A DNA stretch of 64,000 bases from Arbacia lixula (lineage: Eukaryota > Echinodermata > Echinoidea > Arbacioida > Arbaciidae), in contig OZ022589.1 of the NCBI GenBank assembly GCA_963669155.1, positions 7,389,342-7,453,341 of the forward strand. The letters run 5' to 3'. This document shows, in pieces, positions 36,356 to 38,275 of the stretch (within the stretch, counting starts at the first letter, position 1; each line of letters begins with the position of its first letter). Both the position numbers and the translations under genes were made by a program. The notes beneath the pieces are model-generated. The model searched no databases. It saw nothing but the letters and a program-made list of their open reading frames with translations, and had not been told where the DNA came from.

Positions 36356-36424
<69 letters not shown>
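36355..36424. repeat. (CT)n(AT)n microsatellite bordering the tRNA-like array
   Basis: CT repeats run into about 60 bp of alternating AT, which ends exactly where the first 410 bp tRNA-bearing unit begins. Confidence 0.95.
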
Positions 36425-36428
<4 letters not shown>

Positions 36429-36830
36429 TGAAAGAAATGTATGAAGAGAACAATGGTAGGCGTAGCTTAAATCAAGGTTCCCCAGAGCTATCTACCCTTT
36501 GGAAAAATTGGTGATGCCGAAAAAATGTCTCTGCCGGGAATCGAACCCGGGCCCCCAGCTTTGAACGCCGGAGCCTTAACCACTAGACCACAGAGACGGG
36601 TTAGTGGCTTAGGCGATCCCGATACGATTGACCGTCAGATTGACAAATTCTCGACACTATACCAATTATAATTTCCTTTGTTGGGTGCAGGTGGGTTTTG
36701 AACAATGACAAGCCGCCATGCCTCAGCTGGATCAAAGCTATTACTTAGATGCAGTACACGTATGGGAGAAGGTATATATCAATGTGAGAAATTATACATA
36801 TACAACAGCTTTGGCAACTCTTTTATTTAA
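36421..36830 (-). repeat. tRNA-Glu-like repeat unit A (410 bp)
   Basis: The unit starts ATATTTTGTGAAAGAAATG and the next unit starts with the same bases at 36831, a 410 bp period. It contains one minus-strand tRNA-Glu-like sequence (36527-36596) and no protein frame of note. Confidence 0.88.
36527..36596 (-). tRNA. tRNA-Glu(TTC)-like gene in unit A
   Basis: 70 nt. The D arm is GTCT-AGTGGTTA-AGGC. The anticodon arm is CCGGC-GTTCAAA-GCTGG with anticodon TTC, and the T arm is CCGGG-TTCGATT-CCCGG. A and B boxes are intact (TGGTCTAGTGG and GGTTCGATTCC). The acceptor pairs TCTCTG with CAGAGA, only six pairs, one fewer than standard, and the discriminator would be C. It may be a functional variant or a tRNA-derived repeat. 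Confidence 0.68.
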
Positions 36831-37001
36831 ATATTTTGTGAAAGAAATGTATGAAGAGAACAATGGTAGGCGTAGCTTAAATCAAGGTTCCCCAGAGCTA
36901 TCTACCCTTTGGAAAAATTGGTGATGCCGAAAAAATGTCTCTGCCGGGAATCGAACCCGGGCCCCCAGCTTTGAACGCCGGAGCCTTAACCACTAGACCA
37001 A
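36831..37001 (-). repeat. tRNA-Glu-like repeat unit B, truncated at an inversion junction
   Basis: Identical by eye to the first 170 bp of unit A, then broken inside the tRNA at CTAGACCA. The sequence continues as the reverse complement of the unit (AAGGGTAGATAGCTC). Both sides share CCA at the join, consistent with a microhomology-mediated fold-back. Confidence 0.88.
36937..37001 (-). pseudogene. tRNA-Glu(TTC)-like pseudogene lacking its 5' acceptor strand
   Basis: Same anticodon and T arms as the unit A copy, but the 5' TCTCTG is replaced by CCCTTT at the inversion junction, so the acceptor stem cannot form. The internal A and B boxes remain. Confidence 0.75.
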
Positions 37002-37166
37002 AGGGTAGATAGCTCTGGGGAACCTTGATTTAAGCTACGCCTACCATTGTTCTCTTCATACATTTCTTTCACAAAATATTTAAATAAAAGAGTTGCCAAA
37101 GCTGTTGTATATGTATAATTTCTCACATTGATATATACCTTCTCCCATACGTGTACTGCATCAAAG
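37002..37166 (+). repeat. Inverted part of the tRNA-Glu-like unit (right arm of the fold-back)
   Basis: Reverse complement of about 36750-36915. The two arms of roughly 165 bp flank an 85 bp spacer that holds the truncated tRNA. It runs into the hAT-like element at 37167 and resumes at 37899. Confidence 0.88.
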
Positions 37167-37891
37167 CAGGGATATGTTATGGAAGGATATGAAACAACAT
37201 TCTTTCTTTGAGCCCATGCGTGGCACCGCCGAAAAATTGCGTGGTCTCAGCATGTGCTTTTCACGTGTTTTAACAATAACGAACACGATTGCGTAGCAAC
37301 GGTTTCTCAGAGAGAACAAAAGATATGTAGAGTCTTATTTCGCTTGTCCACTTCTGTTGGATTGCATCAATACTTTTGTGAGGAATAGCGATATCAGCGA
37401 ACAAAAATAAACAGTTTTTTAAAGTAAAATATCTCATTTGCACGCAAATTCACGCAAACTCTGTTAATGAAAATAAGCAGCTTAATATATGATTTTGATA
37501 ATGATTGAATCCGACATTTCCGGAAATCTCCGGAAAGTGAAGAAATTTGTTAATTATGCAAGTAAGAATATTATCTTATATCTCCGTTTGTGCATCATTC
37601 AACAATTATTTAGAAGAAAAACGAATACAGGATCTTTAGAGGTGTTGCCCCTTAACTTTCTTGAAAATTACAAAAAAATGTGATAAGAAACACAGCTTCG
37701 AGAAACAAAACAGGCAATTAAAGATACTGCTTTCCAAGTTGACGATAGCAAAATGACGGTGCCGCGCATGGGACTTCAAAGCATTGCAGTGATTGTGGAA
37801 TGCTTTTGACATTCATTAGCACGCTTTAGTATCCATACAGATGTTTGAATATATTATGGTTGAGTTGTCCCTCCTTCCTAACACATCCCTG
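37167..37891 (+). mobile_element. hAT-like non-autonomous element, 725 bp, with target-site duplication
   Basis: TIRs are CAGGGATATGTTATGGAAGG and, inverted from the right end, CAGGGATGTGTTAGGAAGG. ATCAAAG is directly repeated at 37160-37166 and 37892-37898. The uninterrupted site survives in unit A as ATCTAAG (36744-36750 on the other strand), so both boundaries are confirmed. CAGGG ends and a 7-8 bp duplication fit the hAT superfamily. The frame at 37489-37683 has no transposase motif. Confidence 0.88.
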
Positions 37892-38045
37892 ATCAAAGTA
37901 ATAGCTTTGATCCAGCTGAGGCATGGCGGCTTGTCATTGTTCAAAACCCACCTGCACCCAACAAAGGAAATTATAATTGGTATAGTGTCGAGAATTTGTC
38001 AATCTGACGGTCAATCGTATCGGGATCGCCTAAGCCACTAACCCG

Positions 38046-38115
38046 TCTCTGTGGTCTAGTGGTTAAGGCTCCGGCGTTCAAAGCTGGGGGCCCGGGTTCG
38101 ATTCCCGGCAGAGAC
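38046..38115 (+). tRNA. tRNA-Glu(TTC)-like gene in unit C
   Basis: Sequence identical to the minus-strand copy at 36527-36596, including the TTC anticodon in CCGGC-GTTCAAA-GCTGG, the B box GGTTCGATTCC and the six-pair acceptor. It is followed by ATTTTTTT, a good pol III terminator (T run at 38117-38123). The minus-strand copies are followed by CATTTTTTCGG, also T-rich. Confidence 0.68.
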
Positions 38116-38124
38116 ATTTTTTTC
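38116..38124 (+). terminator. Pol III T-run terminator after the tRNA-Glu-like copy
   Basis: A run of at least seven T immediately 3' of the tRNA-like sequence, typical of RNA polymerase III termination. Confidence 0.55.
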
Positions 38125-38271
38125 GGCATCACCAATTTTTCCAAAGGGTAGATAGCTCTGGGGAACCTTGATTTAAGCTACGCCTACCATTGTTCTCTTC
38201 ATACATTTCTTTCACAAAATATTTAAATAAAAGAGTTGCCAAAGCTGTTGTATATGTATAATTTCTCACAT

Positions 38272-38275
<4 letters not shown>

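What the first reader, a model, noticed from the sequence alone, without database searches (positions are those of the whole stretch)
36421..38275. tRNA-Glu-like array rearranged into a fold-back with a hAT-like insertion
Two minus-oriented 410 bp units (the second cut inside its tRNA) are joined head-to-head to plus-oriented units. The join shares CCA and creates arms of about 165 bp around an 85 bp spacer. One plus unit is then split by a 725 bp element. The whole block sits between two (TA)n tracts. The order of events can be read directly: tandem array, inversion at a microhomology, then transposon insertion. TA tracts at both ends suggest fragile sites involved in the rearrangement.
Basis: seen in the sequence. 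Interest (0 to 1): 0.72.

Follow-up and report, generated by a model that had tools for sequence, protein, structure and literature searches.

The report
tRNA-bearing retroposon inserting in TA repeats
The odd mirror-image tRNA block is one copy of a widespread mobile repeat that carries a tRNA-like gene and inserts into TA-repeat tracts of an animal-like genome, often as two head-to-head arms, so it is not a one-off rearrangement of a tRNA cluster.

Summary
The structure is real. A 410-bp unit holding a 72-nt tRNA lies minus (36421-37000) and plus (36998-38280), joined head-to-head at CCA, between two (TA)n tracts. A 725-bp transposon-like element splits the plus arm. I read 54 other loci (all places listed by two similarity searches). 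Of 84 3'-facing outer ends, 72 lie at two sites, just after TTTCTTTCACA or TTTCTCACA; 69 of these 72 abut (TA)n (background 1.1%). The other ends are spread over the unit. Of 60 blocks, the window's included, 24 are head-to-head; of 16 with both ends typed, 14 pair one site of each kind. Best reading: a (TA)n-targeted, 5'-truncating retroposon, primed from one or both break ends, possibly on a circular RNA. The reverse transcriptase was not found (its search did not complete). The tRNA has a Glu-like body but a UCA (opal) anticodon, is not tRNA-Sec, and varies little between copies. It works like metazoan retrozymes or Penelope-like elements, but no hammerhead was found.

The parts
36374..36424 (.). 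left (TA)n tract: half of the target microsatellite; overlaps the unit by ATAT (36421-36424)
36421..37000 (-). minus arm: unit positions 8 to 410 then 1 to 177, ending at site A
36427..36437 (-). site A end motif TTTCTTTCACA next to the TA tract
36520..36525 (-). T6 run directly after the tRNA (pol III terminator-like)
36526..36597 (-). complete 72-nt tRNA-like gene, anticodon UCA, A73
36936..37000 (-). second tRNA copy, first 7 nt missing at the head-to-head join
36998..37000 (.). CCA shared at the head-to-head join
36998..37166 (+). plus arm, first part: unit 96 to the insertion point
37160..37166 (+). 7-bp target duplication ATCAAAG, left copy
37167..37891 (.). 725-bp non-coding element with 13-bp inverted ends CAGGGATRTGTTA; partial relatives at 32795-33013 and 58930-59063, others in L011, L012
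37892..37898 (+). 7-bp target duplication ATCAAAG, right copy
37892..38280 (+). plus arm, second part: rest of the unit, tRNA and tail to site B
38045..38116 (+). complete 72-nt tRNA-like gene, anticodon UCA, A73
38117..38123 (+). T7 run directly after the tRNA
38262..38270 (+). site B end motif TTTCTCACA next to the TA tract
38274..38349 (.). right (TA)n tract; overlaps the unit by ATATATA (38274-38280)

Best explanation
The block is one copy of a dispersed, non-autonomous retroposon family built of a 410-bp tRNA-bearing unit. A break in a (TA)n microsatellite leaves TA-ending 3' strands. Either or both of these prime reverse transcription on the element RNA at two sites, each just downstream of TTTCTTTCACA (site A) or TTTCTCACA (site B). 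Synthesis runs 5'-ward for a variable distance, sometimes through about three and a half units. The free cDNA ends are then joined to the other TA end, which gives single-arm copies, or to each other, which gives head-to-head copies. The join at CCA here is such a cDNA-to-cDNA join. A 725-bp transposon-like element later entered the plus arm. Shown: recurrence, end sites, TA flanks, variable other ends, pairing of A with B, near-identity of copies. Inferred: that the template is RNA, that it may be a circular unit-length RNA (explaining multi-unit arms and A with B pairing), and that an unidentified reverse transcriptase, perhaps Penelope-like, does the work.
For: Genome search found 51 matches of the tRNA-plus-tail query, three of them the window's own, with 40 of 699 candidates scored, and 40 matches of an upstream query, two of them the window's own, with 40 of 374 scored. 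All 54 listed places other than the window's own were read. In 60 blocks, 72 of 84 3'-facing outer ends fall at site A (38) or B (34); 69 of these 72 abut (TA)4 or longer, as do 28 of 36 5'-type ends. Background in windows over 500 bp away is 180 of 16500. 88 inner and 5' ends do not depart from a uniform spread (KS p 0.35). Head-to-head blocks: 24; of 16 with both ends typed, 14 AB, 1 AA, 1 BB (p about 0.002 against independent choice). A third and longer TA run of the unit (TATAT at 206) is a 3' end in only one clear case of 84 (L058), so TA matching alone does not set the 3' ends. No two loci share both 600-bp flanks.
Against: No reverse transcriptase or autonomous partner was found; the GIY-YIG search (PF01541) did not complete. 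No transcript evidence. Target duplications cannot be seen inside (TA)n. The unit has an internal T6, so a pol III transcript should stop after the tRNA; a different transcript must be the template. The A with B bias rests on 16 blocks. The loci were the best matches to the window copy, so old copies are under-sampled. 12 of 84 3'-facing ends are at neither site (3 of these 12 abut TA); four of the 12 are parts of copies that seem split by other insertions (L048, L051). TA matching does seem to matter at 5' ends: four of 36 (L009, L038, L041, L052) lie at unit 204-206, the third TA run, which a DNA-repair reading also predicts.
Confidence: 0.68

Rival explanations
1. DNA-level patching: breaks in fragile (TA)n tracts are repaired by microhomology-mediated copying from a tRNA-unit array or from small circular DNA, with template switching at the ends.
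For: TA overlap at both ends of the window block (4 and 7 bp); four 5' ends at the third TA run; short overlaps at inner joins (12 of 25 joins show 2 bp or more in BLAST, an upper estimate, against 16% by chance). Fold-back copying with 2-8 bp microhomology is known (PMC3907307, PMC11724301, passages seen).
Against: 3' ends are fixed at two motif sites rather than at any TA run. One donor serving dozens of TA tracts on 19 contigs is odd for plain repair.
Confidence: 0.17
2. A foldback DNA transposon that targets TA repeats, like the Mutator-like MuTAnT elements of Medicago.
For: TA-flanked, inverted arms; MuTAnT shows that TA-targeted foldback DNA transposons exist (PMC4486113, passages seen).
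Against: 36 of 60 blocks have a single arm and at most one defined end; inner ends are spread over the unit; the two end types are different sequences sharing only a short motif.
Confidence: 0.06
3. LTR-type element with a tRNA in its LTR (Helenus, TRIMp3).
For: tRNA-like sequence in a repeated segment; tandem arrays of one Helenus family are reported (PMC10886601, abstract and parts 1-4 of 6 read).
Against: Ends are not LTR ends; one end is variable; head-to-head copies and TA targeting are not LTR features.
Confidence: 0.02
4. One-off inversion of a tRNA-Glu tandem array or an assembly artefact.
For: Looks so from the window alone.
Against: Register is not restored; 23 further head-to-head blocks at other loci with different joins.
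Confidence: 0.02

Closest known systems
Metazoan retrozymes
   Same: Short non-coding units (about 170-400 nt RNAs) as dimers to multimers, thought to move by reverse transcription of circular RNA, perhaps by Penelope-like elements (PMC7229834, abstract and passages).
   Different: No hammerhead found here; carries an intact tRNA; TA-repeat targeting and head-to-head copies are not mentioned in the passages seen.
Penelope-like elements
   Same: 5' truncation, tandem copies, inverted pseudo-LTRs (PMC8969392, passages).
   Different: No coding sequence recognised in the unit; no RT or GIY-YIG partner identified (search unanswered).
tRNA-derived SINEs
   Same: Non-autonomous repeat with tRNA-type promoter boxes and a constant 3' end (inferred).
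   Different: tRNA is internal to a repeating unit and followed by T6/T7; copies do not start at the tRNA; up to about 3.5 units per copy (L060).
Helenus (TRIMp3)
   Same: tRNA-like sequence within a repeated retroelement segment.
   Different: No LTR layout; variable 5' end; TA targeting.
MuTAnT elements (Medicago)
   Same: Inserted in (TA)n; foldback arms.
   Different: Those are DNA transposons with terminal inverted repeats and 9-nt duplications (passages); here 36 of 60 blocks have a single arm.
Twin-primed (5'-inverted) LINE-1 copies
   Same: Head-to-head copy made when both target strands prime on RNA (recalled; the paper was not held).
   Different: Here both outer ends are mostly constant 3'-type ends, as expected when both strands end in TA.

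Membership tests
Metazoan retrozyme | type I hammerhead ribozyme in each unit | tested here: not met
   No Rfam hammerhead in window 35000-40000 (E up to 1) or in L014, L016, L034 (E up to 5); no CTGANGA core in either strand of the window's unit
Metazoan retrozyme | short tandem units, dimers to multimers | tested here: met
   410-bp unit, copies up to about 3.5 units (L060: 1421 nt)
Metazoan retrozyme | circular unit-length RNA | not testable with these tools
   A with B pairing in 14 of 16 typed head-to-head blocks is only suggestive
Penelope-like element | RT with GIY-YIG endonuclease | not tested
   The genome search with PF01541 did not complete
tRNA-derived SINE | 5' end at or just before the tRNA | tested here: not met
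   88 inner or 5' ends spread over the unit, KS p 0.35 (a few are cut points of copies split by other insertions)
tRNA-derived SINE | target site duplications | tested here: inconclusive
   flanks are mostly (TA)n, so duplications cannot be recognised
Helenus (TRIMp3) | two LTRs and fixed ends | tested here: not met
   single-arm and head-to-head copies with variable 5' ends
tRNA-Sec gene (ARAGORN call) | 90-101 nt with long variable arm and G73 | tested here: not met
   72 nt, 4-nt variable region, A73; criteria from PMC5330540 passages
tRNA-Glu gene | UUC or CUC anticodon | tested here: not met
   UCA in the window copies and in 91 of 93 ungapped full copies; body nearest to recalled human Glu-CTC, 60 identities
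hAT transposon (the 725-bp element) | 8-bp target duplication (recalled) | tested here: not met
   7 bp here and TTGCAAC beside the L011 relative; the L012 relative shows no clear duplication. A query example in PMC4455052 implies that some hAT families are marked 7-bp, so the class stays open
P superfamily (the 725-bp element) | 7-8 bp duplication plus THAP-type transposase | tested here: inconclusive
   7-bp duplication fits (Galileo); the longest stop-to-stop frame touching the element is 86 aa and mostly outside it

The most novel reading that the evidence does not exclude
A ribozyme-free relative of retrozymes: a circular RNA about 410 nt long that contains a complete tRNA is copied by rolling reverse transcription from both ends of broken TA repeats, and the tRNA, with its UCA anticodon kept intact, still works, so that the element spreads a UGA-decoding (opal suppressor) tRNA through its host genome.
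Probability: 0.07. Interest if true: 0.88.

Novelty: new variant of a known kind. Interest (0 to 1): 0.6.

Why it matters
If right, it links three things usually seen apart: a tRNA gene, a multi-unit small retroposon, and strong targeting of TA microsatellites. Because TA repeats are self-complementary, both ends of the break can prime, which would make two-ended target-primed reverse transcription directly visible as head-to-head copies. It also warns that tRNA annotation by ARAGORN, which called 'tRNA-SeC' here, can be inflated by such a repeat, and that head-to-head tRNA pairs need not reflect local inversion. The UCA anticodon raises a testable question about UGA decoding.

Tried and rejected
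Rejected: plain inversion (register test); assembly artefact (recurrence); tRNA-Sec (criteria); Helenus LTR element; hammerhead retrozyme in the strict sense; Dada transposon for the 725-bp element (Dada inserts inside RNA genes, and its U6 and U1 families lack terminal inverted repeats; PMC3706591 passages). An early fold-back DNA repair model for the single locus was dropped as the leading reading once one search showed the genome-wide family.

Led nowhere: exact tRNA pattern in viral contigs (0 hits) and genome contigs (0 hits); sea cucumber tRNA paper (no terms found); Drosophila virilis paper for Penelope target sites (passages, nothing on TA targeting); translation of six stretches carrying a second TA-associated repeat (read by eye, no long frame seen). 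Papers not held. Among the titles and abstract starts listed by the ten literature searches (two searches listed 20 of 62 and 20 of 38) none describes this element; the library is partial.

Full report
What is there. The finding describes the sequence well. A 410-bp unit, numbered here from the first base of its 72-nt tRNA, runs minus from 37000 to 36421 (unit 8 to 410, then 1 to 177) and plus from 36998 to 38280 (unit 96 to 410, then 1 to 236), with a 725-bp insertion at 37167-37891. The head-to-head join shares CCA. Without the insertion, the plus arm matches the minus-arm unit at 549 of 550 aligned bases plus one internal indel. The block lies between (TA)n tracts at 36374-36424 and 38274-38349.

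The inversion story. In a plain inversion of an array, flipping the minus block back should continue the unit register. It joins position 177 to 96. So an inversion alone does not explain the block.

The block is a dispersed repeat. The window lies in a 607-Mb genome of 590 contigs. A search with the tRNA and tail found 51 matches (three in the window's own block) with 40 of 699 candidates scored; a search with the upstream part found 40 matches (two in the window's own block) with 40 of 374 scored. Together they touch 19 contigs. I read all 54 listed places other than the window's own. No pair of loci shares both 600-bp flanks; ten flank pairs share one stretch of 120 nt or more, apparently other repeats. 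So they are separate insertions. They are the copies most similar to the window's, not a random sample.

Rules of the copies. I cut the 55 loci, the window's included, into 60 blocks; pieces more than 60 bp apart were counted apart, except in the window, where the 725-bp insertion was bridged. Of 84 outer ends that face outward in the 3' direction, 38 lie at site A (unit about 173, after TTTCTTTCACA), 34 at site B (unit about 229, after TTTCTCACA or TTTCTTACA), and 12 elsewhere. Of the 72 A and B ends, 69 abut (TA)4 or longer; of the 12 others, 3 do. Four of the 12 belong to copies that seem split by other insertions (L048, L051), and one (L058) lies at a third TA run of the unit (TATAT at 206). 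Of 36 5'-type ends, 28 abut TA; four of the 36 (L009, L038, L041, L052) lie at unit 204-206, the third TA run, which points to TA matching in the 5' join. In windows more than 500 bp away the rate of (TA)4 is 180 of 16500. With (TA)8 or longer the figures are 61 of 72, 18 of 36, and 44 of 16500. Inner and 5' ends (88, segments of 60 nt or more) do not depart from a uniform spread (KS p 0.35). Copies range from a fraction of a unit to about 3.5 units (L060). In 62 of 65 end matches the TA run follows CACA or TACA directly or after AA, TT or TTG.

Head-to-head copies. 24 of 60 blocks, the window's included, have two arms facing outward. Eight of these have at least one end at neither site, and in a few the second arm is very short (L030: 23 nt). 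Of the 16 typed at both ends, 14 have one A and one B, one is AA (L016) and one is BB (L040). Independent choice from single-arm frequencies (19 A, 15 B) gives p about 0.002. One small template carrying one A and one B site, such as a circular unit, predicts this; a long linear multi-unit RNA would give many AA and BB. The sample is small. Inner joins: of 25 examined, 16 overlap by 1-9 nt, one is blunt, 8 carry 1-45 extra bases; BLAST overlaps are upper estimates, since the window's true overlap is 3 where BLAST gives 6.

Mechanism. I think the family is copied by target-primed reverse transcription at breaks in (TA)n. TA repeats are self-complementary, so both 3' ends of a break read TATATA and can prime at the TA stretch next to site A or B. 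If one end primes, a single-arm, 5'-truncated copy results; if both prime, the two cDNAs meet head to head. The RNA step is inferred. Fold-back DNA repair can make similar shapes (PMC3907307, PMC11724301, passages) but would not favour two motif-bound 3' ends over a longer TA run.

The tRNA. Both complete window copies fold as a canonical tRNA with 58.7 bits against a gathering score of 29. The 3' neighbour is T6 or T7. The anticodon is UCA. ARAGORN says tRNA-SeC, but tRNA-Sec has 90-101 nt and needs G73, and ARAGORN gives far too many tRNA-Sec calls in animals (55.2 per genome against 2.3 by the dedicated program; PMC5330540 passages); this one has 72 nt and A73. The body is nearest to human Glu-CTC among 16 tRNAs recalled from memory. 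Over all loci read there are 98 full copies in 53 loci; 61 equal the majority sequence and 91 of 93 ungapped ones keep UCA. In the 25 loci chosen by the upstream segment, non-CpG variation is 13 of 2605 in the tRNA, 116 of 4522 in the following 93 bp, and 60 of 4849 in the query segment itself; in the other 29 loci it is 18 of 3771, 75 of 5942 and 141 of 6354. Against a special status of the tRNA: two short stretches vary as little by the all-site counts, unit 186-220 in the first set (11 of 2160, tRNA 23 of 4383) and unit 240-264 in the second (7 of 838, tRNA 24 of 3030). So the tRNA varies clearly less than the next 93 bp and the upstream segment, but is not alone in this. Constraint in the source copies, or exchange with a true tRNA gene, is possible; nothing shows that the tRNA is charged or used, and its low variation means that the kept anticodon is no independent signal.

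The inserted element. The 725-bp element has 13-bp inverted ends CAGGGATRTGTTA, a 7-bp duplication here, and no transposase-sized frame. Part of it has relatives at 32795-33013 (91%) and 58930-59063 (82%) in the window; L012 holds an 87% relative over 716 positions and L011 a split one. Beside the L011 relative TTGCAAC stands on both sides, though its left end reads CATTG rather than CAGGG; the L012 relative shows no clear duplication. In L011 a unit copy lies between the two pieces of the relative. No match to the element lies inside the unit at the other 54 loci, so it entered this copy afterwards. A 7-bp duplication fits the P superfamily (Galileo, PMC4168063 passages), but a query example in PMC4455052 implies that some hAT families are marked 7-bp too. 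The class stays open.

What it is like. Retrozymes share multi-unit small repeats and proposed copying of circular RNA, perhaps by Penelope-like elements (PMC7229834), and Penelope-like elements show 5' truncation, tandem copies and inverted pseudo-LTRs (PMC8969392). The hammerhead, the defining mark of retrozymes, was looked for and not found. The partner reverse transcriptase could not be sought, because the PF01541 request did not complete. MuTAnT shows that TA repeats are a known transposon target in plants (PMC4486113), there by a DNA transposon.

Organism. Genome size and the rhodopsin-type receptors in the window suggest an invertebrate animal; an echinoderm such as a bat star would fit from recall, untested.

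Noticed in passing
36223-36373: A second TA-associated repeat with a hairpin (24-bp arms) and end GCCATCGCAACCTTTATTCTTCT; a query with 36223-36365 gave 92 matches (40 of 650 candidates scored), and relatives lie in several of the loci read here. It may be another (TA)n-associated family.
   Followed up: partly
45626-46859 and 52621-54313: Two neighbouring minus-strand rhodopsin-type receptor genes, 215 of 238 residues identical in the part compared: probably a recent duplication.
   Followed up: partly
32110-34884: Another, weakly matching rhodopsin-type receptor (7tm_1 below the curated cut-off in both pieces); a partial relative of the 725-bp element lies between the pieces, perhaps in an intron.
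   Followed up: no
63296-63709: Reverse transcriptase fragment (RVT_1).
   Followed up: no
1629-2186: Tandem repeat of 190-bp units, 2.9 copies at 95% match.
   Followed up: no
16886-17323: Long CTA microsatellite, 146 copies.
   Followed up: no
L048 and L051: Unit copies at these loci are interrupted by stretches of about 730 and 1100 bp; by eye the one near unit 110-133 looks like the same element in both, in opposite orientation.
   Followed up: no
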